A stretch of 60,236 nt of DNA from NCBI GenBank assembly GCA_913774845.1, contig CAJYJO010000026.1:1-60236 (forward strand), read 5' to 3'. The notes under the pieces are model-generated. The model worked only from the letters and a program-made list of their open reading frames with translations, was not told the DNA's origin and made no database searches. Within the stretch, counting starts at the first letter, position 1; each line of letters starts with the position of its first letter. The position numbers were made by a program, and so were the translations under genes. This DNA comes from an uncultured Microbacterium sp. GTDB lineage: Bacteria > Actinomycetota > Actinomycetes > Actinomycetales > Microbacteriaceae. Of the stretch, positions 44,727 through 58,680 are shown in pieces.

Positions 44727-47696
44727 TCAGGCCCGTTGGCCGGCCAGCTCCGGCTCCCGGGCGACCTCGGTCTCGGACGTGTTGCGCTGCGTGCCGGTGC
44801 GGCCCGTCTCGAGGAGCTCCGCCAGGAACGCACCGGTGTGGCTGTCCTCCACCTTCGCGACCTGCTCGGGAGTGCCGGTGGCCACGATCGTGCCACCCCC
44901 GGCGCCGCCCTCGGGGCCGAGGTCGATGACCCAGTCCGAGCTCTTGATGACGTCGAGGTTGTGCTCGATCACGATGACCGTGTTGCCCTTGTCGACCAGC
45001 CCGTTGAGCACCTTCAGCAGCAGCGAGACGTCTTCGAAGTGCAGGCCCGTCGTGGGCTCGTCGAGCACGTAGATCGAGCGACCGTTGCTGCGGCGCTGGA
45101 GCTCGGTCGCGAGCTTGACGCGCTGCGCCTCGCCACCCGAGAGGGTGGTCGCGGACTGACCGAGTCGCACGTACCCGAGACCCACGTCGACGAGGGTCTT
45201 GAGGTAGCGGTAAATGGCCTGGATCGGCTCGAAGAACTCCGCCGCCTCGGAGATCGGCATCTCGAGGACCTCGGCGATGTTCTTGCCCTTGTAGTGCACC
45301 GACAGGGTGTCGCGGTTGTAGCGCTTGCCGTGGCAGACCTCGCAGTCGACGTAGACGTCGGGCAGGAAGTTCATCTCGATCTTCAACGTGCCGTCGCCCG
45401 AGCACGCCTCGCAGCGTCCGCCCTTGACGTTGAAGCTGAAGCGGCCGGCCTGGTAGCCGCGCACCTTCGCTTCGGGGGTCTCGGCGAAAAGGCTGCGGAT
45501 GCGGTCGAAGACGCCGGTGTAGGTCGCCGGGTTCGAGCGGGGCGTGCGGCCGATCGGCGCCTGGTCGACGTGCACGACCTTGTCGAGGTTGTCGAGACCG
45601 GTGACGCGCGTGTGCTTGCCGGGCACGCGGCGCGCGCCGTTCAGCTTGGAGGCGAGGACTTCGTAGAGGATGCCGTTCACCAGCGTCGACTTGCCGGAAC
45701 CGCTCACACCGGTGACCGAGGTGAGCACGCCCAGGGGGAAGTCGACCGTGACGTTCTGCAGGTTGTTCTCGCGCGCCCCGACCACCGTGATCTGGCGCTT
45801 CTTGTCGATCTTGCGACGCTTCTTCGGCGCCTCGATCGCACGGCGGCCCGAGAGATACGCACCGGTGAGCGACCGCTCGTCGTCGAGGAGCTCGGCGAGG
45901 GGCCCGGAGTGCACGACGTTTCCGCCGTCGACACCCGCTCGCGGCCCGATGTCGACGACCCAGTCGGCGGCGTGGATGGTCTCTTCGTCGTGCTCGACGA
46001 CGATCAACGTGTTGCCGAGGTCGCGCAGGGTCTCGAGCGTCTGGATGAGACGGCGGTTGTCGCGCTGGTGCAGACCGATCGAGGGCTCGTCGAGCACGTA
46101 GAGAACGCCCGTCAGTCCCGAGCCGATCTGGGTCGCCAGGCGGATGCGCTGCGCCTCGCCGCCCGACAGGGTGCCGGCCGCGCGACCGAGGCTGAGGTAG
46201 TTCAACCCGACCTGCAGCAGGAAGTCGAGACGGGCGCGGATCTCGCGCAGCACGGCCGCGGCGATCGTCGCCTCGCGCTCGGTGAGCGTGAGCTTCGAGA
46301 AGAACTCGCGCGCGTCGGCCAGGCTCATGCGCGAAGCCGCGGCGATCGAGGTGTTGTCGACGAGCACCGCGAGCACTTCGGGCTTCAGACGGTCACCGTC
46401 GCAGACGGCACAGGGGACCTCGCGGAGGTACTCCGACCAGCGCTGACGCTGGGTGTCGGACTCGGCCTGCAGGTACTGCCGCTCGATGTAGGGCACGACG
46501 CCCTCGAAGCCCGAGGAGTATCGCATCTCGCGGCCGTAACGGTTCTTCCACTTGACGGTGACCTTGTAGTTCTCGCCGCGCAGCACCGCCTGCTGGACGT
46601 CGTGCGAGAGGTCCTTCCACGGGGTGTCGAGTGAGAACTCGAGGTCGCGCGCAAGTCCTTCGAGCAGGCGCTCGTAGTACTGGAAGAGGCCCTTGCCCTG
46701 CGTGGTCCACGGCAGGATCGCGCCGTCGCGGATCGAGAGCTCCTCATCGCCGAGCATGAGGTCGACGTCGACCGACATGCGCGTGCCGAGTCCGGAACAG
46801 ACGGGGCACGCACCGAAGGGCGCGTTGAACGAGAAGGTGCGCGGCTCGATCTCGGTCAGCTGCAGCGGGTGCCCGTTCGGGCACGCCAGCTTCTCGGAGA
46901 AAGACTGCCACGCGTCGTCGCCCTCTTCGTCGACGAAGTTGACCTGCATGATGCCGCCGGCGAGTCCCATCGCCGTCTCCACCGAGTCGGTGACGCGGCT
47001 AAGGTTGTCTCCGGATGCCACGAGTCGATCGACCACGACCGCGATGTCGTGCTTGTAGCTCTTCTTCAAGACGGGAGGCTCGGCCAGCTGCACGAGCTCG
47101 CCGTCGACGACCGCGCGGGCGTAGCCCTTGGCGCTCAGCTCTTTGAAGAGGTCGACGAACTCGCCCTTCTTCTGCGTGACCACCGGGGCGACGATCTGGT
47201 AGCGCGTGCGCTCGGGCAGCTCCATGAGCTGGTCGGCGATCTGCTGCACGGTCTGACGCTGGATGCGTGCGCCGCAGTCGGGGCAGTGCGGGACGCCGAC
47301 GCGCGCCCAGAGCAGACGCATGTAGTCGTGGATCTCGGTGATCGTGCCGACCGTCGAACGCGGGTTGCGGTTGGTGGACTTCTGGTCGATCGAGACGGCG
47401 GGGCTCAGGCCCTCGATGAAGTCGACGTCCGGACGATCGACCTGACCGAGGAACTGACGCGCGTAGGCGCTGAGCGACTCGACGTAGCGGCGCTGCCCCT
47501 CGGCGAAGATGGTGTCGAAGGCCAGGCTCGACTTGCCCGAGCCGGACAGGCCGGTGAATACGACGAGCGAGTCGCGGGGGATGTCGAGGTCGACGTCCTT
47601 GAGGTTGTGGACGCGCGCGCCGCGCACACTCAACGTGCCGCTGGAGGCGGCGGTATTCGCGGGCGATGACGAGGAAACGACGGGAACGATCGGCAC
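44727..47696 (-). CDS. uvrA: Excinuclease ABC subunit A
   Basis: The 989-residue damage-recognition ATPase of nucleotide excision repair. It has two ABC cassettes (Walker [10 protein letters not shown] near the N-terminus and GVSGSGKST in the second half, each with an LSGGEAQR signature) and zinc-finger cysteines (CPDCG, CPNG/CPVCSG, and C-x2-C pairs in CEACSGDG and CEVCHGKR). The start is GTG 47696, with no ribosome binding site but a TAGACT -10 box six bases upstream, so the mRNA is leaderless. An ATGTCGGAG element 8 bases further up makes this a PafBC-type damage promoter. It leads uvrA-uvrC-rapZ-whiA. Confidence 0.97.
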
Positions 47697-47702
47697 CTGT
47701 TA

Positions 47703-47725
47703 AGTCTAGGTCGGCCCTCCGACAT
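47703..47725 (-). promoter_or_regulatory. PafBC-type DNA-damage promoter of uvrA
   Basis: Minus strand: ATGTCGGAG (47725-47717), 8 bases, TAGACT (47708-47703), 6 bases, GTG start. This matches the LexA-independent mycobacterial motif TGTCRGTG-N8-TAnnnT closely, and the layout is identical at uvrB and at the GIY-YIG-like gene. Confidence 0.75.
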
Positions 47726-47835
47726 CGGCCCCGGGTTCGCCCGGAGCGCACGGATGTGCGACAGTGCGCTGCTCGCACCGGGAAGACGATCTCTCGCGCA
47801 CGCCATCGTGTCGCGCCCGTCGGGCTCCCCCGTGG

Positions 47836-48276
47836 TCAGGGGATCGGAGCGTCGGCGGGACGCGCAGCGAACGGCGCGAGTCCGTCGCGAAGGGCGACCA
47901 GGGCGTCCGCATCGACGCCGACCCTCGCCATGATCTGCGTCGGTACGTCGAGAGCGCGTTCGCGCAGCTCTCGCCCCTCGGGCGTCAGCGCGATGTCGAG
48001 CACGCGTTCGTCATCCGCGCGCCGGGAGCGGATCACCCGCCCCTGGGCTTCGAGCCGCTTCACGAGGGGCGAGAGGGTCGCCGGCTCCATCGCGAGTTCG
48101 GCGGCGAGGGCGCCGAGGGAACGCGGCGACTGCTCCCAGAGGGCGAGCATGACGAGGTATTGCGGGTGCGTGAGCCCGAGGGGCTCGAGGACGGGCCGGT
48201 AGATCGACACCACGTTGCGCGCAGCGGTGACCAGCGCGAAGCACACCTGGTTCTCGAGCGTCAGCGGATCGTCCAC
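47836..48276 (-). CDS. MarR/OhrR family transcriptional regulator
   Basis: A 146-residue winged-helix regulator. The N-terminal LENQVCFALVTAARNVV places a cysteine (Cys12) where OhrR proteins carry the peroxide-sensing cysteine; LTHPQYLVMLALW and the recognition region LAMEPATLSPLVKRLEAQG follow the OhrR pattern. A sensor of organic peroxide is the best guess, but no ohr gene is adjacent. GGAGGAGG precedes the GTG start. It is divergent from a small zinc-ribbon gene, and the shared gap contains ATTAGT-AC-ACTAAT, its probable operator. Confidence 0.87.
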   Translation of the reverse strand: MDDPLTLENQVCFALVTAARNVVSIYRPVLEPLGLTHPQYLVMLALWEQSPRSLGALAAELAMEPATLSPLVKRLEAQGRVIRSRRADDERVLDIALTPEGRELRERALDVPTQIMARVGVDADALVALRDGLAPFAARPADAPIP

Positions 48277-48296
48277 ACGACCTCCTCCGGAAAATA

Positions 48297-48310
48297 ATTA
48301 GTACACTAAT
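48297..48310. promoter_or_regulatory. Probable MarR/OhrR operator
   Basis: ATTAGT and ACTAAT flank AC in the 38-base gap between two divergent genes. The repeat covers a TACACT -10 box (48302-48307) for the plus-strand gene and a TAGTGT candidate on the minus strand, so one bound dimer could control both. AT-rich against the high-GC background. Confidence 0.6.
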
Positions 48311-48314
48311 GATC

Positions 48315-48551
48315 ATGACACGAAAGGACGCCGATCGCCCGTCGCTGCGCGAGCGTGTACGCGAGGCCGGCGGCTGGTACCAGTACCTGAACACCCGACT
48401 CATCCGGGTCGCTGGCCCGGCCTCGGTCGGCCCCTACGAGACCACCCCCGAACCGGTGCGCACCGGCCGACCGTGCCCACTGTGCGGTCACGCCATGACG
48501 GAGCACACCGTCGACCGGTCGGGGCCGAAGCCGCTGCTGCACTGCCCCTGA
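48315..48551 (+). CDS. Small zinc-ribbon-like protein divergent from the MarR/OhrR regulator
   Basis: A 78-residue hypothetical protein. The C-terminal part has CPLCGHAM and a final cysteine in LLHCP, with a nearby His, resembling a small zinc ribbon. The N-terminal half is basic and amphipathic (RERVREAGGWYQYLNTRLIRV). I take ATG 48315, seven bases after the TACACT box (leaderless); ATG 48309 overlaps the operator. Its control by the neighbouring MarR/OhrR protein is likely from the shared operator. Function unknown. Confidence 0.7.
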   Translation: MTRKDADRPSLRERVREAGGWYQYLNTRLIRVAGPASVGPYETTPEPVRTGRPCPLCGHAMTEHTVDRSGPKPLLHCP

Positions 48552-48644
48552 CGCAAGCACGACGTGTCCCGTCGTCGATCGCGTCGCCTCACGACAAATC
48601 GTCGTCTTCTCGAAAGGAACCGGGGCTCCCGCCCCCTCTGCAGC

Positions 48645-50714
<2,070 letters not shown>

Positions 50715-50720
50715 GATTCC

Positions 50721-50743
50721 AGCGTAGGCGGGGCCTCCGACAT
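50721..50743 (-). promoter_or_regulatory. PafBC-type DNA-damage promoter of uvrB
   Basis: Minus strand: ATGTCGGAG (50743-50735), 8 bases, TACGCT (50726-50721), 6 bases, ATG. The same spacing is seen at uvrA and the GIY-YIG-like gene. Confidence 0.75.
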
Positions 50744-50850
50744 CGGGGTCGGCTTGCGTTCGCCGTGCGCGAGCATGCCACTCGCGCCGGTCCCCGAGAC
50801 GGGTGCCGGGATGTGCGCCCGGCGTCGAGCCAGGTTCGCCGGAGGGTGGC

Positions 50851-51453
50851 TCAGCCGCGCGAGGTCAGCCGCGCCCAGAGATCATCGACCTGCCGACGGG
50901 TGGCATCCATCGTCGAGGAGGTGTCGATCACGACGTCGGCCAGGGCGAGGCGTTCCTCGTCGCTGGCCTGCGAGCCGACGCGGGCACGGGCATCGGCCTC
51001 GCTCGACCCGCGGTTGTCGACCAGCCGGTGCACGCGCACCTCCGCGGGGGCGTGCGCGACGATCACCGTGTCCCACGCGTCGTCGGCGCGCGCCTCCGCC
51101 AGCAGCGGCACGTCGTAGACGACGACGGCGTCCGGGTCGTCGTCGAAGGCCGCCGCGAACCGCCGCTGCGACTCCGCTCGGACGGCCGGATGCACGAGTG
51201 CGTTCAACCTCGCCAGCCGCTCGGGGTGACCGAACACCATCGCTCCGAGGGCGGGACGGTCGAGGGAGCCGTCGTCCGCGATCACGTCCGCACCGAACAC
51301 GCGCGCGATGTCGGCGAGCACCGGCGAACCCGGCGCCTGGACCTCGCGCACGATGGCGTCGGCGTCGACGATCACCGCGCCGCGGTCGGCGAGGAGGGAT
51401 GCGATGGTGGACTTGCCCGAGGCGATTCCACCGGTGAGCGCGACGAGGGGCAC
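50851..51453 (-). CDS. coaE: Dephospho-CoA kinase
   Basis: A 200-residue kinase for the last step of coenzyme A synthesis. The P-loop GGIASGKST is at the extreme N-terminus, followed by [14 protein letters not shown], the conserved HPAVR and [12 protein letters not shown] use GTG 51453 because family members start just before the P-loop; an in-frame start at 51471 would add six residues. It lies downstream of uvrB's promoter region on the same strand and is divergent from the receiver protein gene. Confidence 0.93.
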
Positions 51454-51514
51454 TCGACGAGGATGCCACACCCCGGCCGGTCCGGCCCTCCCACCGTCGG
51501 GGCCGGTCGTCGTC

Positions 51515-51520
51515 TAGCAT
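51515..51520 (+). promoter_or_regulatory. Candidate -10 box (TAGCAT) of the receiver protein gene
   Basis: TAGCAT, 46 bases upstream of ATG 51567, in the 113-base divergent gap with coaE. Confidence 0.35.
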
Positions 51521-51566
51521 TCCTCGAAAGCGCACACCGTTCCACCCGCTCCCCGGAAGCTCCGCC

Positions 51567-51968
51567 ATGCCCCCCGCACGCACGATCGTGGTGATCGAGG
51601 ATGATCTCGACATCCGGCTGCTGCTGTGCACCATCCTCGAGGGCGCGGGATTCGCGGTGCACGCCGCTGCCACGGGCCTCGACGGCATCGAGCTCGTGCG
51701 CCGACACGACCCGACCGTCACCACCCTCGATGTCAGCATGCCCGGCATCGACGGCTTCGAGACCGCTCGGCGCATCCGCGCGTTCAGTCCGACGCGCATC
51801 CTCATGGTGAGCGCGCGGGCCGACGAGCCCGAACGGCGCGCCGGCCGCGAAGCCGGTGCCGACGATTACCTCACCAAGCCCTTCCGTCCGCGCGAGCTGC
51901 GTCAGCGTGTCGAGGATCTCGCGGGGGCTGCACCGCCGGTACCCCCTCCGATCCGAGCACGCCCCTGA
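51567..51968 (+). CDS. Single-domain response regulator (receiver only)
   Basis: A 133-residue protein that is a complete CheY-like receiver with no output domain. The acidic pocket (Glu11, Asp12, Asp13), phospho-acceptor Asp55 in LDVSMPG, Ser82 and Lys104 in YLTKPF are all present, so it should accept phosphate. The short Pro-rich tail holds no DNA-binding motif. It converges on a degenerate GGDEF protein and the histidine kinase behind it; pairing with that kinase is likely but not proven. Confidence 0.88.
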   Translation: MPPARTIVVIEDDLDIRLLLCTILEGAGFAVHAAATGLDGIELVRRHDPTVTTLDVSMPGIDGFETARRIRAFSPTRILMVSARADEPERRAGREAGADDYLTKPFRPRELRQRVEDLAGAAPPVPPPIRARP

Positions 51969-51996
51969 CCCTCCGGGCCCGTCCCCGACGTCGGCC

Positions 51997-53154
51997 TCAC
52001 ACCGGCCCGAGGGCGTCCTCACCGCTGCGGGCGGCCTGAGCCGCGGCCTCCTCCGCCCTCCGGACCAGGGCATCGGGAGCGTAGCCGTGGTCGGCCGCCA
52101 GGGCCATCCCCACCCCGACCACGGGGACGACCGCCGCTCCCAGCCGGGAGAGATCGCGCACGACCCGCTCACGGAGGACACGCGCAGCGCGCCGCACGTC
52201 GGTGGTGGGGGTGGTGGTGAACGCGACGACGAGGCCGGTGGCATCCACTTCTCCCACCAGCGCGAGGGTGGGCGCGTGACGGCGGACCGAGGCCCGCAGT
52301 TCGCGCGCGATCCCGTCGGCGTCGTCGGGGCCGAAGGCGACCGCGATGCGCTTCAGATCGTCGACGCGGACACCCAGCACGCACAGGCCTTCGCCCGCGG
52401 ACTCCGCGCGCGAGGCGACGCTGGTCAAGGTCACGTCGAACGACTCGGGCAGCAGGACGCCATCGGCATCCATCGACAGCTCGAGGGTCTCGGAGATGCC
52501 GCGCATCGCCGAGTCGTTCGTGCGCAGGACCGAGGTGACCACGATCGCGGCGATGACGAGGGCGACGGTCAGCAGCGCCGACACCCGGGTGTCGAAGGCG
52601 GAGCGGAACAGATCGCTGTCGGGTCCGATCGCGACGAAGACGATCGTGCGGCTGACGAACCACACCGCTTCGACGGCCAGGATGGCCGCCAGGCCCGCGG
52701 CGCTCCAGCGACGGCCGATCGGCCCGCGGCGGGTCTCGATCGCGCCGAGCACGGCGAAGAGGGCGTTGCCGAGGAAGAAGGGCACCGCGCCCGCCCAGTC
52801 GCCGCCGTCGGGGCCCGCAGCGAGCGCGGAGATCACGACGACGGTGATGGTGACGACCATGACGAGGGACGGGACCCGCGTCGGCCGGCCGTTGTACGCG
52901 ACGCATCCCAGCCAGATGAGACCCGTGGCGGCGACGAAGGCGCCGTTGCCGACGGCGACCGCGACGAAGGCACCCGACATGAGCATCCACGCGAGGTAGC
53001 ACAGCGCGGAGAACGTGCCCGCCAGGTAGGCGCTGGCCCACAGCCGTCCGGACCAGCCGTCCTTGAGCATGATGGTGTCGAGCAGGTACATCGTCGTCGA
53101 GACGACGATCACGAGCGCAGCGACGACCTGCAGGGTCAGGACATCCAGGATCAC
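51997..53154 (-). CDS. Membrane protein with degenerate GGDEF domain
   Basis: A 385-residue protein with about seven to eight transmembrane helices (1-210) and a cytoplasmic GGDEF-like C-terminus (about 225-385). The diguanylate cyclase signature is lost: G-E-V-D-A (301-305) stands where GGDEF or GGEEF should be. It is therefore unlikely to make cyclic di-GMP and may instead bind a nucleotide or act structurally. Its GTG overlaps the stop of the histidine kinase gene (GTGA), so the two are coupled and probably act together in the membrane. Confidence 0.75.
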   Translation of the reverse strand: MILDVLTLQVVAALVIVVSTTMYLLDTIMLKDGWSGRLWASAYLAGTFSALCYLAWMLMSGAFVAVAVGNGAFVAATGLIWLGCVAYNGRPTRVPSLVMVVTITVVVISALAAGPDGGDWAGAVPFFLGNALFAVLGAIETRRGPIGRRWSAAGLAAILAVEAVWFVSRTIVFVAIGPDSDLFRSAFDTRVSALLTVALVIAAIVVTSVLRTNDSAMRGISETLELSMDADGVLLPESFDVTLTSVASRAESAGEGLCVLGVRVDDLKRIAVAFGPDDADGIARELRASVRRHAPTLALVGEVDATGLVVAFTTTPTTDVRRAARVLRERVVRDLSRLGAAVVPVVGVGMALAADHGYAPDALVRRAEEAAAQAARSGEDALGPV

Positions 53155-54770
53155 AGGCCCTCCCGGGGATCGCGCGGAAGCCGCACGGTGAAGGTGGCGC
53201 CCTCGCCGAGGGCGGTGCGCACCGTGATCTCCCCGCCGTGGGCGCGGACGAGGTCGCGGCTGATCGCCAGCCCCAGCCCGCTGCCGTGGGTGGAGGAGTT
53301 GCGCACCGCGTCACCGCGGAAGAAGCGTTCGAACAGACGGGCCTGCTCGCCCGGGCCGATCCCCGGCCCGTCGTCCGAGACGACGATCGCGACCGAGTGC
53401 ACGTCGCACACGACGGCCGCCTCGACCGCTCCGCCGCGGGGGATGTACTTCACCGCATTCGACAACAGGTTGTCGACCACTTGGCGCACGCGCCGCGCGT
53501 CGACGACGGCGCGTGCCTCCGCTTCGCCGACGACCGAGACCCGGATGCCGTGATCCTCGGCGCGCGGAGCGATGGATTCCGCCGCGGCGCGGACGACGGC
53601 GGAGAGGTCGGTGACGCGCAGGTCGAGGTCGACGCCGATCCCCTCGCGCGAGGTCGTCGACATCGCGAGGATGTCGGCCACCAGTTCGAGCAGCCGCGAC
53701 GCGTTGCGCTCGGCGACGGTCAGGCGGTCGCGGACCGGACCGGTGATCGAGGGGTCGTCCAGTGCCAGGTCGAGGTAGCCGATGATCGAGGTGAGGGGCG
53801 TGCGCAGTTCGTGCGAGACGCTCGCCACGAGGTCCTCCCGCGCCCGCCGCGCCTGCTCCTCGACCGTGACGTCGCGCGACACCACCACGCCACCGGCCTC
53901 GCCGATGTCGCTCGCGGGCAGACGTCGAGAGGTGATGCTGAGGGCGCGACGGTCCTCTCCCGGGGAGCCGTACCAGACCAATTCGCCCTCGAACACCTCC
54001 CCCGCGCGGGCGCGGGCCAGCGGCGAGGCCTCGGGGGCGATGACCGTCGACCCGTCGGCGGAGAACACCGCCACCTCGCGGCCGAACGCATCGGTGGTGT
54101 TCAACAGCAGCGCATGGGCGGCGTTCGTGACGGTGAACTCGCCCGACGGCGTCACACGCGTCACGCCGAAGTCGACGGCATCCAGAACCTCCGTGACGAG
54201 GTCCTCCTGCCGCCGCGCACGATCGACGGCGCGACGCAGCTCGGCCGACTGCTTCTCGAGCAGTTCGCGCTGGGCCCGCGCACGGCGGGCGGTGAAATGC
54301 GACATCGACGACAGCGCCGCGATGACGAACGGCAGCACGAGAGTCGCCGAGGTGAAGCGCTGCCCGTCGACGACGAACGACTGATGGATCATCACCGCGG
54401 TGACCACCACGCTGATCGAGACCACGCCTCGCACCCCGAAGACCATGCCGACCCAGATCGCCGGGAACGCCCACAGCAGCCCGAGGCCGGCCAGCGGCGC
54501 CGCCTCGCGAAGGAGCGCGATCGCCAGCACATCGGCGATGGGCAGGGCCCCCATCACCCAGCGCGGGAGGCGTTCCCAGGGGGCCAGCATCGCCGCGACG
54601 ACGCCGGCGAAGATGACCGCGGCGCCGGTGAAGAACACCGGGCCGCCGAGGACCTGCCGGGTGAGCACCGATACGGTCACGCCGATGAGGGTCGCGGCGG
54701 TGAGGAGCATCTGATTCGCCACGATGCTGCGGCGCAGCCCGAGGCGCTCGCTCGGGACGGGAAGCGCCAT
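53151..54770 (-). CDS. Membrane sensor histidine kinase with PAS domain
   Basis: A 539-residue kinase: about five to six N-terminal helices (15-160), a coiled linker, a PAS-like domain (about 190-305), HisKA with His320 in VSHELRTPL, and an HATPase domain with N box DNLLSNAVKY (Asn438), DDGPG (466-470) and GSGLGL (496-501). The signal is unknown. ATG 54770 is seven bases after TATGGT, so the transcript is probably leaderless, and an inverted repeat covers the -35 region. It is coupled to the degenerate GGDEF protein, and the nearby receiver is a likely target. Confidence 0.88.
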   Translation of the reverse strand: MALPVPSERLGLRRSIVANQMLLTAATLIGVTVSVLTRQVLGGPVFFTGAAVIFAGVVAAMLAPWERLPRWVMGALPIADVLAIALLREAAPLAGLGLLWAFPAIWVGMVFGVRGVVSISVVVTAVMIHQSFVVDGQRFTSATLVLPFVIAALSSMSHFTARRARAQRELLEKQSAELRRAVDRARRQEDLVTEVLDAVDFGVTRVTPSGEFTVTNAAHALLLNTTDAFGREVAVFSADGSTVIAPEASPLARARAGEVFEGELVWYGSPGEDRRALSITSRRLPASDIGEAGGVVVSRDVTVEEQARRAREDLVASVSHELRTPLTSIIGYLDLALDDPSITGPVRDRLTVAERNASRLLELVADILAMSTTSREGIGVDLDLRVTDLSAVVRAAAESIAPRAEDHGIRVSVVGEAEARAVVDARRVRQVVDNLLSNAVKYIPRGGAVEAAVVCDVHSVAIVVSDDGPGIGPGEQARLFERFFRGDAVRNSSTHGSGLGLAISRDLVRAHGGEITVRTALGEGATFTVRLPRDPREGL

Positions 54771-54777
54771 GGCCTCG

Positions 54778-54819
54778 ACCATAGCGGCTCGGCGGGGGCC
54801 GTCACGGGCGCGTGACGGC
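54778..54819 (-). promoter_or_regulatory. Leaderless promoter and inverted repeat of the histidine kinase gene
   Basis: TATGGT (54778-54783 on the plus coordinates) precedes the ATG by 7 bases. GCCGTCAC (54798-54805) and GTGACGGC (54812-54819) form an 8-bp inverted repeat over the -35 region, a possible operator, or a terminator of the upstream gene. Confidence 0.4.
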
Positions 54820-54937
54820 GGCACGCCGATTTCGCGGACCTGCACCGGCGCTCGTCGCCGTTCGCCGAGCCGCCGTCGAACGCCGAGCCCACGTCATGGA
54901 ACCCCGCCCCGACGAGCCGGCGCCGGTGCCCGTCGCG

Positions 54938-55609
54938 TCAGAATCCGAAGTCGCCGCCGAAATCCCCGCCGAAGTCGGCACCCACGTCGCCGACACCGGG
55001 GTCCACCGCACCGCCGTCCACCGCTCCCCCATCGGCGCCGCCGCCCTGGTCGGCGGCGGCTCCATCGGCGTAGCCGGCGTCGTAGCCGGGGTCGAAGAGG
55101 GCGCCGACGAGCGCCGATCCGACGACGTATCCGCCGATGGTGCCGAGCATCGACGCACCGAGCATCGAGCCGAAGCCCGGGCCGCCCGAGAACGACCTCC
55201 CGCCGAAGGTGCGCTCCATGAAACCGGGCTGGGCGTACTCCGCGCGGGTGGCGGCGCGGGCGAGAGACGACGGGTCGTCGCTGCGCGGTCGTTCCGCGGG
55301 GTCCACGCCCGCCGAGATCTCCTGCAGGACCTGCTGCCGCTGCGCCGGGGTGAGCTTTCCGAACGCCTCGGCGTGCACCTGTTCGACGGTCTCCGGGGGC
55401 GCCGTCCGAAGGAGGTAGCGGTAGCGCTCGACAGCACGCTGGTCGTCGCCGGTACCGGATGCCGCGCCCACGGCGCCCGCGGGCGGCGGCGGCGCGTAGC
55501 TCCCGTCGGCTGCCCGCATCTCGCTCGCCGCGCCCCGCGGCGTCGCGGTCTCGGCAGGGCGCTTCGACTCATCGTCCGCGGAGCCGAACAGTCGATCGAG
55601 GAATCCCAT
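54938..55609 (-). CDS. Uncharacterised Gly/Asp-rich protein
   Basis: A 223-residue protein of unknown function. The N-terminus MGFLDRLFGSADDE is followed by a Pro/Ala linker and a helical region (AVERYRYLLRTAPPETVEQVHAEAFGKLTPAQRQQVLQEI, about 62-101). A glycine-zipper segment (GSMLGASMLGTIGGYVVGSALVGALF, about 150-175) could enter a membrane, and the C-terminus is an Asp/Gly repeat ending GGDFGGDFGF. I know similar proteins in Microbacteriaceae only as hypothetical. GGGAGG supports ATG 55609, and a TATGGT -10 box lies about 29 bases upstream. Confidence 0.75.
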   Translation of the reverse strand: MGFLDRLFGSADDESKRPAETATPRGAASEMRAADGSYAPPPPAGAVGAASGTGDDQRAVERYRYLLRTAPPETVEQVHAEAFGKLTPAQRQQVLQEISAGVDPAERPRSDDPSSLARAATRAEYAQPGFMERTFGGRSFSGGPGFGSMLGASMLGTIGGYVVGSALVGALFDPGYDAGYADGAAADQGGGADGGAVDGGAVDPGVGDVGADFGGDFGGDFGF

Positions 55610-55809
55610 CTTGTGCCTCCCGTGTCGGTGTGCGCCCACCATAGATACGGAGTCTCGGAGGACGCCGGGGCTTGCGTCCCGCGTCGGGGCTCGCACGGGC
55701 CGCTCCGCGAGCCGCGTACGACGTCGGCGCCGTCCCGCGTCGGGATCACCCGCCGCGCGCACGGCGGCTCGTCCGGCTCCCCGACCCCAGCCGCGGGGAC
55801 CACCGGGGC

Positions 55810-56361
55810 TCACCCCCGCCGCGCGATGGCCTCGCTCGTCCAGCGGGCGTACCGCGCCCAGGGGTCGTCGACCCCCGCGGCGAGGGCGGTCACATGCGCG
55901 TCGAGCGCCGGGGATCGGCGGAACCACTCGGTGCGCCCGTATCGCTCCTCGGCGAACGACTCGTGCCGGCGACGTTCGACGAGGCGATCCCCGGGCTCGA
56001 ACGCCAGCAGCTCGTCGTGCCAGATCGCGGCGAGACGCTGCCGCGGACGGGCCGTCGTACCGATCTTGATGCGGTCCTCGAACCGCAGGTAATAGACGAC
56101 GTCGACCCGGGGCGGCGGGAGTTCGTCGTCGACGGGATCGCCGTGCCGCCACTCGCACACGGCGCACAACCACCCGCTCGGCCAGCGCACGCCGAGTCGC
56201 GAGCCGCACAGCCGGCACGGCACCGGCAGCACGTCGGTGATGCCCGACGCCGCCGTGCTCCACTCGGCGCTCACGGCCGCGTGCCAGGCGCACAGACTCA
56301 CCGGAGCATCGGGCTCGACGCCACCGGGGCAACCGGGGACGAGGCAGTCGGAGGCGGGCAT
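55810..56361 (-). CDS. Zinc-ribbon GIY-YIG/T5orf172-like protein with a DNA-damage promoter
   Basis: A 183-residue protein. The first 75 residues hold two metal-binding sites: Cys6, Cys11, Cys24, His27, then a C-x2-C...C-x2-C ribbon (Cys49, Cys52, Cys66, Cys69). Residues about 87-165 resemble the T5orf172/MUG113 branch of GIY-YIG nucleases: VVYYLRFEDRIKIGTT, Arg106, a candidate catalytic Glu129, His133 and FAEERYGRTEWF. Nuclease activity is an inference. The ATG is leaderless, six bases after TAGCGT, with ATGTCGGAG 8 bases further up, the same damage promoter as uvrA and uvrB, which points to a role in DNA repair. Confidence 0.72.
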   Translation of the reverse strand: MPASDCLVPGCPGGVEPDAPVSLCAWHAAVSAEWSTAASGITDVLPVPCRLCGSRLGVRWPSGWLCAVCEWRHGDPVDDELPPPRVDVVYYLRFEDRIKIGTTARPRQRLAAIWHDELLAFEPGDRLVERRRHESFAEERYGRTEWFRRSPALDAHVTALAAGVDDPWARYARWTSEAIARRG

Positions 56362-56367
56362 GAGCTC

Positions 56368-56390
56368 ACGCTACGCCCGACCTCCGACAT
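56368..56390 (-). promoter_or_regulatory. PafBC-type DNA-damage promoter of the GIY-YIG-like gene
   Basis: Minus strand: ATGTCGGAG (56390-56382), 8 bases, TAGCGT (56373-56368), 6 bases, ATG 56361. Element, spacing and start distance are the same as at uvrA and uvrB. Confidence 0.72.
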
Positions 56391-56394
56391 CGCC

Positions 56395-58680
56395 TCACGC
56401 GTCCGTGTCGGGCGCCTCCAGCAGCAGGAACAGCCCGGCGTAGGGTCCGAGCTCGAGAGAGAAGCTCTGCAGCTCGTCGACGCGTCCGACGACGTCGCCG
56501 CTGGCGGCATCCACCGCGGTGCTCTGCGGCACGAGCCATTCGGAGCGCACCGTGCCCTCGATCGTCTCTCCCGAGAAGTTCAGCACCGTGATCTGCAAGG
56601 GGGCGTTGTCGGCACGTCGGTCGCCCCCGTCGAGGCGGTGCACCATGACGAGCATGCTCGGGTGGCCGACCTGCGGGATGTCGACCTGCGAGGCCACGGC
56701 GATCCCGTGCTCGCTGCGAATGGCCAGGACGTCGCGCAGGCCCGCCAGGAACGACTCCGGGTCCTTCTGCTGGTCGCCGAGCGAGCCGTAGAGCGAGCGC
56801 GCCCGCGGGACGCCCGAGACCGACGACACCGCTTCGGGAGCGACGTCCAACAGGTCGTGCGCCCCCCGCTCGATCCAGCGGGTGTCGCCGGAGGAGATGA
56901 GGTGGCGCACGTCGTCGGCGGGCAGGGTGAGCGATCCGGTGAGGTCCCACCCCGACAGCGCGAAGACGCCCGGCTGCCACGAGTTGTATTTGACCAGCAG
57001 CAGATGCGCGTCTCGGATCGCCGGGACGTCGGCCTCCGTGATGTCGTCGAGCGTCGCCTTGCCCTGCGTGGCGGCGATGAGGGATGCCGAGGTGCAGGCG
57101 ATCCCGTTCTGCGTGAAGACGAGGTTGTAGTCGGCGTCGACCGTGAGCTTCTCGGTCAGGTCGGCCCGGACCATCTCCGCGATCTCCCCGCCGGTGTGCT
57201 CCCCGTGCCGGAACGGGTAGACGGTGTCGCGGTGCGTCGTCGCCCAGTGGACCAGCTCGTAGGTGAGCTCGTCGTGGTTCTGCATGCCGTGGACGAGCTG
57301 CACGGGCTCGACGCCCGTCTCGAGGGCCGTGGTGAGCGCGAGGCGCAGGAACTCGGTGTTGGCCGTGGCCAGAGCGTGGTGGTACCCCGGGCGGGTCACG
57401 AAGTCGTACGACAGATCCGCGCCGACCGCGCCCGTGTCGCGGATGTCCTCCATCGTGAGGTTGAGCTCCTGGAACGTGAAGCCGCCGACCTTGCGCACCA
57501 TGCCCGCGATGATGTGGTTCGCCGCGTGCGAGAGCGGGTGGCCCTCCGACCACGCCGGCAGCCCCTCCGCGCTCTTCTCCACGCCGAGGAAGCCGTTGGC
57601 ATCCAGACGCAGGGCGCTCGTGCCGAGATCGCCGAGCGAGTGCAGGGCGTCGCCGATGACGAGGCGCATCCCCGCGAAAGTGGGGTCCAGCCAGTTGATC
57701 GAGGGCTGTCCCTCCTTGAAGTAATGCAGGTAGACCCAGCGACGCTCGAGACCGTCCACACCTACGACGGGCGCGGTGGCGCTCCAGTTCGTCTCCTTCA
57801 CACCGGGGGTGTAGAAGATGACGCGCTGTAGTTCGCCGATGATGTAACCGGCGGCGCTGAGCTCACGCTCGGTCTCGGCGTCGAGGTTGACCGAGTCGCG
57901 CCCGGCGGGCACCTCGGGCAGCAGGTCCCAGTCCTCCCGGGGGATCTCGACCATGTGGTAGATCCCGGGGTAATCCTTGTACGCCATCTCCGCGAGGCGG
58001 AAGTCGGCGCCCTTGCCGGTGTGACCGGGGACGATGTCGTCGATCACACTGCCGCCGTGCGACTCCGCCACGTCGGCCACCCGGCGGAAGGCGTTCTCGT
58101 CGCCGAACTCGGGGTCGATCTGCGTGCTGATGCGGTCGAAGTGACCATCGACGCTCGGCGTCTCCTGCCACCCCGTGATGCCGCCGGCCCGCTTGACCGG
58201 GCCGGTGTGGATGCCGTTGATCCCCACCCACTCGAACGCTTCCCACAGCGCCTCGTCACCGAGCGCATCGAGGAACGACTCCCCCGGCCGGGTGATGAGC
58301 GAGATGGGGTACGCCGTGAACCACACGTCCGTCGACTCGATCGCGCGGCGCGCGTCGGGGCGGGCGTAGGGATTGCGCCACATCGAGGGCTGGCCCGACA
58401 ACTGCCGGCTGAGGACGTCGGCATCCTTGAGCATCGACTGGCGCACGAGCCATTCGACGTACGAGGGGTTGCCGCCGTTGGCGTTGCGCGGGTCCGTGAG
58501 GAACCGTCGCAGCGTGCCGCCTCGGAACTGGTCCCGCGGACGCAGCCGTCGCGGCCGCGCGGGGTACCGCTGCTCGTCGTAGCTGATCTCCGATACCGTC
58601 TCGACGGGTTCATCCGCGGTGGCTTGCTCGGCCAGCGTCGTCTCGTCTTCCGTCACGGTGCGCTCGTCGGCGTCGTCCAC
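56395..58680 (-). CDS. GH13 alpha-amylase family enzyme, trehalose synthase-like
   Basis: A 761-residue glycoside hydrolase family 13 protein. The catalytic residues are visible: nucleophile Asp360 in ALRLDANGF, acid/base Glu405 in TFQELNL, and Asp470 in MQNHDE. It is nearest, in my reading, to the trehalose synthase/maltose glucosyltransferase branch, but it is longer than typical TreS and its N-terminal 60 residues are acidic and unrelated. Substrate and direction (maltose to trehalose, or hydrolysis) are uncertain. GGGAGG supports the GTG start. No partner trehalose gene is adjacent. Confidence 0.75.

What the first reader, a model, noticed from the sequence alone, without database searches (positions are those of the whole stretch)
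47703..56390. Three genes share one PafBC-type DNA-damage promoter with identical geometry
uvrA (47703-47725), uvrB (50721-50743) and the GIY-YIG-like gene (56368-56390) each have ATGTCGGAG, exactly 8 bases, a TAnnnT box (TAGACT, TACGCT, TAGCGT), exactly 6 bases, then the start codon. The element and spacing match the LexA-independent mycobacterial damage promoter TGTCRGTG-N8-TAnnnT, which is controlled by PafBC. The fixed distance to the start codon, giving leaderless mRNAs, is an extra feature. It suggests that in this family the excision-repair genes belong to the PafBC regulon rather than the SOS regulon.
Basis: partly seen in the sequence, partly recalled or inferred. Interest (0 to 1): 0.85.

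Follow-up and report, generated by a model that had tools for sequence, protein, structure and literature searches.

The report
PafBC damage promoters on leaderless genes
Three genes, two of them for DNA repair, share a known type of DNA-damage switch set so close to each gene that its message should begin at the start codon; the switch is of a known kind, but this bacterium has about 80 copies, far more than most of its relatives.

Summary
The three sites are real and as described: TGTCGGAG, 8 bases, TAnnnT, 6 bases, start codon. They are not chance: the genome has 80 exact TGTCRGNG-N8-TAnnnT sites against about 2 expected and 0 in the reversed-pattern control. 65 of 80 have an ORF start 6-8 bases downstream, 54 at exactly 6. 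23 of 80 precede replication or repair genes, 10 precede DUF222 genes. pafB and pafC are adjacent and match solved PafBC proteins. The PafBC (RecA-NDp) reading is well supported; damage induction was not testable. In kind this is known from mycobacteria. Added here: the leaderless placement is common at such sites across the class (245 of 427 GTG-type sites, 32 genomes), so it is not special to these genes. The GAG form is expanded in one clade of the genus (22 of 198 genomes have 19-71 sites, the other 176 a median of 7). In one sister genome, four non-repair orthologues have the leaderless -10 box without the 8-base element, which suggests that the regulon grew by adding that element to existing leaderless promoters.

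The parts
47703..47725 (-). PafBC-type promoter of uvrA: ATGTCGGAG (47717-47725), N8, TAGACT (47703-47708), then 6 bases to GTG at 47696
44727..47696 (-). uvrA, 989 aa, predicted leaderless
   Evidence: ORF; NCBIfam NF001503 and TIGR00630 above cut-off
50721..50743 (-). PafBC-type promoter of uvrB: ATGTCGGAG, N8, TACGCT, then 6 bases to ATG at 50714
   Evidence: element also upstream of uvrB in 17 of 29 named loci examined
48645..50714 (-). uvrB, 689 aa, predicted leaderless
   Evidence: ORF; NCBIfam NF003673 and TIGR00631 above cut-off
56368..56390 (-). PafBC-type promoter of the GIY-YIG-like gene: ATGTCGGAG, N8, TAGCGT, then 6 bases to ATG at 56361
   Evidence: exact element at the orthologue in G539 (L220, start at 7 bases)
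55810..56361 (-). GIY-YIG-like gene, 183 aa (weak assignment)
   Evidence: ORF; MUG113 and T5orf172 below cut-off; 71% identical orthologue in G539

Best explanation
The three elements are -26/-10 promoters of the PafBC (RecA-NDp) type. Inferred working: single-stranded DNA made by damage activates the PafB-PafC pair; PafB reads TGTCGGAG at about -28 to -21, PafC docks on domain 4 of the housekeeping sigma factor, and RNA polymerase opens the TAnnnT box. Transcription then starts at about the first base of the start codon, so that uvrA, uvrB and the GIY-YIG-like gene give leaderless mRNAs. They belong to a set of about 80 sites which has grown in one clade of the genus, probably by adding the 8-base element to leaderless promoters that already existed. 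Shown here: the sites, their number, spacing and recurrence in relatives, the genes behind them, and the presence and conservation of pafB/pafC. Inferred: binding, induction, transcription starts, and the direction of the growth.
For: 80 sites, 0 in the reversed-pattern control, about 2 expected. 65 of 80 have an ORF start at 6-8 bases. 23 of 80 precede replication or repair genes. pafB and pafC are adjacent and match PDB 7p5x/9fnd/6sj9 chains, with the MFERDK-LR-LG segment of the PafB HTH part kept. uvrB upstream regions chosen by protein and not by motif: 17 of 29 examined loci carry an exact element against 0.0 in Markov-simulated sequences, all 17 with an in-frame start at 6 or 7. 19 of 26 GAG sites of the distant clade member G539 and 15 of 24 sites of the sister genome G517 stand before homologues of genes in this set (blastp E<=1e-5, a few only 34-38% identical). 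That PafB reads the -26 motif, PafC contacts sigma domain 4 and ssDNA activates the pair is from passages of PMC11804915 on M. smegmatis.
Against: No expression, binding or transcription-start data for this organism. 15 of 80 sites have no ORF start at 6-8 bases; some (before luxS, a GDSL lipase, Sir2) may be chance or leadered genes. 47 of 80 downstream genes are neither replication/repair nor DUF222. The seventh base of the element is A in 59 of 80, not the T of the mycobacterial consensus. 12 of the 29 uvrB loci lack an exact element. Gain rather than loss rests on one sister genome, and the tree is of PafBC itself.
Confidence: 0.86

Rival explanations
1. The shared element is the site of another activator or of an alternative sigma factor, and resembles the PafBC site only by descent or accident (for example ClgR, once reported to recognise the mycobacterial motif).
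For: A passage of PMC5656591 cites a study in which ClgR recognised this promoter motif. The common form here is GAG rather than GTG.
Against: The element ends 8 bases before the -10 box, which fits the PafBC -26 position and not a -35 box. The target genes overlap the mycobacterial PafBC regulon as described in PMC8223512. PafB and PafC are both present and conserved. clgR was not sought here.
Confidence: 0.08
2. The sites are ordinary leaderless promoters of the housekeeping sigma factor, and the conserved TGTCGGAG has no regulatory role.
For: TAnnnT-N6-start is a general leaderless promoter layout in actinobacteria (recalled; the titles of PMC3898074 and PMC3160421 point that way). In the sister genome four orthologues have this layout without the element.
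Against: 80 exact elements against about 2 expected, repeated before homologous genes in G539 and G517 and before uvrB in distant genera, are hard to explain without a function of the element.
Confidence: 0.04
3. On the growth of the regulon only: the large set is ancestral to the genus, and the low-count genomes lost sites or moved to another element form, rather than the high-count clade gaining them.
For: Only GAG sites were counted over the genus. In G517 only 12 of the 24 sites of all forms are GAG.
Against: Counts rise stepwise towards the crown of the high-count clade on the PafBC tree, and most other genomes of the class have few GAG and a moderate number of GTG sites (means 3.0 and 13.5 in 31 genomes).
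Confidence: 0.25

Closest known systems
RecA-NDp / PafBC-dependent promoters of Mycobacterium (tTGTCRgtg - 8 nt - TAnnnT)
   Same: Same TGTC-R-G core, same 8-base gap to TAnnnT, targets that include uvrA, uvrB and recA, pafB and pafC present.
   Different: Seventh base A in 59 of 80 sites and fifth base G in all 80; many more exact sites than most relatives. The leaderless placement is not a difference: it is common in the class.
LexA/SOS-controlled uvrA and uvrB
   Same: Damage-response control of excision repair is the expected function.
   Different: No exact LexA box near the three genes; recA and imuA' in this genome do have one near their PafBC-type element.
Leaderless mRNAs of actinobacteria
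   Same: TAnnnT box followed by 6-8 bases and the start codon.
   Different: Here the layout is coupled to a -26 element of the damage response. I found no paper in the held library that states this as a rule for PafBC promoters.

Membership tests
PafBC (RecA-NDp) promoter | TGTCRG core, 8-base gap, TAnnnT | tested here: met
PafBC (RecA-NDp) promoter | GTG at bases 6-8 of the element, as in the mycobacterial consensus tTGTCRgtg | tested here: not met
   the three sites read GAG; 10 of 80 genome sites read GTG. The consensus prints these bases in lower case, as less fixed ones, and a later M. tuberculosis motif (TGTCGG-N10-TAnnnT) does not require them
PafBC (RecA-NDp) promoter | pafB and pafC in the genome | tested here: met
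PafBC (RecA-NDp) promoter | Sites concentrated at DNA repair genes | tested here: met
   23 of 80 replication/repair, 10 of 80 DUF222; no genome-wide gene table was at hand for an enrichment test
PafBC (RecA-NDp) promoter | Induction by DNA damage that depends on PafBC and not on RecA/LexA | not testable with these tools
   no expression data
PafBC (RecA-NDp) promoter | PafBC binding at the -26 element | not testable with these tools
   no binding data
Leaderless gene | -10 box 6-8 bases before the start codon | tested here: met
   6 bases at all three genes; 65 of 80 sites at 6-8
Leaderless gene | Transcription start mapped at the start codon | not testable with these tools
   no 5'-end data
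LexA/SOS target | LexA box in the promoter of uvrA, uvrB and the third gene | tested here: not met
   no exact GAACNNNNGTTC near them; one-mismatch hits at chance level

The most novel reading that the evidence does not exclude
In one clade of this genus the PafBC damage regulon has grown several-fold by repeated, independent gain of an 8-base GAG-type -26 element in front of genes that already had leaderless -10 promoters. Leaderless layout is thus the raw material for cheap recruitment into a damage response: the DNA-reading part of PafB stayed the same, while its sigma-contacting partner PafC changed.
Probability: 0.5. Interest if true: 0.65.

Novelty: new variant of a known kind. Interest (0 to 1): 0.5.

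Why it matters
It offers a second, non-mycobacterial model for the PafBC response with a list of about 80 predicted sites. It suggests that this response is read out largely through leaderless mRNAs across the class. And it gives a graded series of related genomes (0-6, 10-16, 25-33 and 41-71 GAG sites) in which one can ask how a stress regulon grows and whether the regulator or the promoters changed.

Tried and rejected
A LexA explanation was tested and not supported for the three genes. A classical -35/-10 sigma-70 promoter was sought in 47600-56600 and none was found. A structure of the GIY-YIG-like protein was tried from a 2-sequence alignment; the model was too poor and no fold search was made. 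Whether the expansion came from a changed DNA-reading helix of PafB: between 20 high-count and 11 low-count genomes PafB has 2 residues fixed differently (153 and 186, outside the HTH) and PafC has 12, three of them in the first 83 residues. The comparison of uvrA upstream regions in named loci was uninformative, as uvrA was absent or out of reach in most of them, and is not counted. Several sister-genome stretches chosen by guessed gene order did not hold the orthologue hoped for: no match was listed for radA, the DUF3072 gene, the DtxR gene, the MFS gene of L037, the M3 peptidase gene or the gene of L064. Co-occurrence of PafC with the motif over the phylum was not used as evidence, because it is confounded by kinship.

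Literature: no paper in the held library has both PafBC and Microbacterium (0 papers). Two have both PafBC and leaderless; the passages seen mention them apart. Searches listed nothing that, by title or start of abstract, reports leaderless layout as a rule of PafBC promoters or growth of the regulon in this group. Papers outside that library were not seen. Of PMC11804915, PMC6789036, PMC5656591, PMC8151990, PMC8223512, PMC10936776 and PMC7790235 I saw passages only. Gamulin 2004 and the Muller papers were seen only as cited there.

Full report
Observation. The three sites exist as written, on the minus strand, and are the only exact ATGTCGGAG-N8-TAnnnT strings in the window. Each is followed by exactly 6 bases and the start codon of an ORF. 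uvrA and uvrB are firm. The third gene has only a weak match to GIY-YIG-type models. The genus is not named by the tools; the best named UvrB match is Microbacterium commune at 92%, so Microbacterium is my inference.

Genome-wide. TGTCRGNG-N8-TAnnnT occurs 80 times in the 3.37-Mb genome and 0 times read backwards. A first-order Markov model of the window expects about 2.0, and 0.05 with N6 and ATG/GTG. Of the 80, 59 have A at the seventh base, 10 T, 6 G and 5 C; all 80 have G at the fifth base; 49 have A and 28 have G just before the element. ATG or GTG stands at exactly 6 bases in 54 of 80, at 7 in 8, at 8 in 4; every other distance from 0 to 39 has 0-5. By the ORF rule used (at least 70 aa), 65 of 80 have an ORF start at 6-8 bases: 54 at 6, 8 at 7, 3 at 8. 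Some of these ORFs may be out-of-frame artefacts of a GC-rich genome (the one at L010, for instance, has no Pfam match).

Genes. Of the 80 downstream ORFs, 70 were scanned with Pfam, 8 more, and uvrA and uvrB with NCBIfam. Replication or repair, 23 of 80: uvrA, uvrB, a UvrD-like helicase, pcrA, dnaX, dnaE (replicative type), holA, gyrB, ftsK, recA, radA, recQ, mfd, an sbcD-like gene (Pfam only; no NCBIfam match at the 1e-50 used), tag, alkZ, SRAP, SprT-like, an ExoIII-type gene, two RNase_T exonucleases, a TM0106-type nuclease, and imuA' (no Pfam match itself; named from the IMS-domain gene after it). Ten of 80 precede DUF222 genes: eight by Pfam (L020, L035, L063, L011, L015, L041, L047, L053) and two cut by contig ends but alike in their first residues (L002, L027). 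The other 47 include the GIY-YIG-like gene, transporters, metabolic enzymes and unknowns; a few (before luxS, a GDSL lipase and Sir2, with starts at 14-38 bases) may be chance sites. recA has an ORF start at 29 bases and an exact LexA-type box 74 bases upstream of the element. imuA' has one 24 bases downstream of it.

Regulator. pafB and pafC lie side by side (L081; PafC HTH domain PF19187, E=1.3e-28), followed on the same strand by an MTR4-like helicase. None of the nine L081 ORFs scanned matched a Pup ligase; the whole genome was not searched for one. PafB and PafC match the M. smegmatis chains of 7p5x/9fnd and the 6sj9 PafBC chain over nearly their full length; the MFERDK-LR-LG segment of PafB is kept. 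Passages of PMC11804915 state that the PafB HTH reads the -26 motif, the PafC HTH contacts sigma domain 4, and ssDNA activates the pair. Passages of PMC8223512 list UvrABC and recA in the mycobacterial regulon, say that the motif extends to other Actinobacteria, and say that recA, uvrA and uvrC there answer to both PafBC and SOS. Passages of PMC8151990 give TGTCGG-N10-TAnnnT in M. tuberculosis.

Leaderless placement is common, not special. Of the 80 named loci fetched by the UvrB protein, I examined the 31 most similar, all Actinomycetota by title; the other 49, among them further actinobacterial MAGs, were not examined. In the 29 of these 31 with enough upstream DNA, 17 carry an exact element against 0.0 in Markov-simulated sequences, and all 17 have an in-frame start at 6 or 7 bases. 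The other 12 have no exact element; three of them have a looser one. In 32 genomes of the class, this one included, 245 of 427 TGTCGGTG-N8-TAnnnT sites have ATG or GTG at 6 or 7 bases (sums). In two of these genomes read site by site, 10 of 15 (G307) and 9 of 15 (G325) sites have ORF starts at 6-8 bases; the 15 were all for which loci were given, out of 29 and 19 sites.

Clade expansion. GAG-type sites in 346 genomes drawn over the phylum: 59 here, and at most 10 in the 31 other members of the class. In 198 genomes of the genus, this one included, 22 have 19-71; the other 176 have at most 17, median 7. On a PafB+PafC tree of 30 of 31 genomes the 19 high-count genomes (25 or more) are one side of a fully supported branch. 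Counts are 0-6 in the six deepest genomes, 10-16 in the five nearest outside genomes, 25-33 in one high-count branch (support 100/98) and 41-71 in the other (support only 81/54). Two limits: the tree is of the regulator itself, and over the genus only GAG sites were counted. The sister genome G517 has 24 sites of all forms, with 2 in the control, against 80 here. In G517 17 of 24 sites, and in G539 18 of 26 GAG sites, have ORF starts at 6-8 bases.

How it may have grown. I took 13 stretches of G517, placed by guessed gene order around known G517 sites. 16 orthologues at 45% identity or more had readable upstream DNA; two more were cut by stretch ends and two weak matches were set aside. Nine keep the element with at most 2 mismatches to TGTCGGAG, but eight of these nine (uvrA, uvrB, dnaX, the RNase_T gene, SprT-like, sbcD-like, the TM0106-type gene with a start at 19 bases, and a hydrolase gene) were already known G517 sites and served as anchors. 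The ninth, the GIY-YIG-like gene, is new and weaker (CGTCGGTG, 6 bases to an in-frame GTG 18 bases upstream of the aligned start). Of the seven others, four (pta, a metallophosphatase, an S9 peptidase, an MFS gene) have an in-frame TAnnnT with N6 or N7 and a start codon but 4-6 mismatches in the element; one MFS gene has such a box out of frame with the aligned start; two (the GDSL and Sir2 genes, whose sites here may be chance) have neither. In those four, then, the leaderless core promoter is shared and the element is the difference. Loss in G517 is not excluded.

Verdict. The added value is that leaderless layout is common at such promoters across the class, and that one clade has a large GAG-type set of sites.

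Noticed in passing
L002, L011, L015, L027, L035, L041, L047, L053, L063 (and L020); L258 for one full copy: Ten DUF222 genes carry PafBC-type leaderless promoters; nine have closely similar first residues, and the copy read in full has a Cys/His-rich stretch near its end that looks like an HNH nuclease motif. Four (L002, L027, L047, L053) are cut by contig ends, as expected of repeats that break an assembly.
   Followed up: partly
L013, L056, L075, L050, L031: Replication and chromosome genes (dnaX, replicative dnaE, holA, ftsK, gyrB) carry the damage-type element, so parts of the fork machinery may be raised by damage.
   Followed up: partly
L055:500-560: imuA' has a PafBC-type element and, 24 bases downstream, an exact LexA-type box just before the start: possible double control of the mutagenic polymerase operon. 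The element also stands before imuA' in G539 (L230).
   Followed up: partly
G000:C22:26025-26087 (L029, L030): Two elements back to back, 19 bases apart and pointing outwards; one faces an ABC transporter gene.
   Followed up: no
G450:C17:828-9221 (listing): Five near-identical elements on one strand within 8.4 kb of a relative's genome, perhaps a tandem gene array with copied promoters.
   Followed up: no
L057 and L210: The F420 biosynthesis gene fbiC (cofGH) has a leaderless PafBC-type promoter in two distant members of the clade, a possible link between cofactor F420 and the damage response.
   Followed up: no
PafC in L081, L177-L195 against L196-L206: Twelve residues of PafC but only two of PafB are fixed differently between high-count and low-count genomes.
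   Followed up: partly
G000:C5:23375-23572 (L078): A third WYL-domain gene apart from pafB and pafC, not examined.
   Followed up: no
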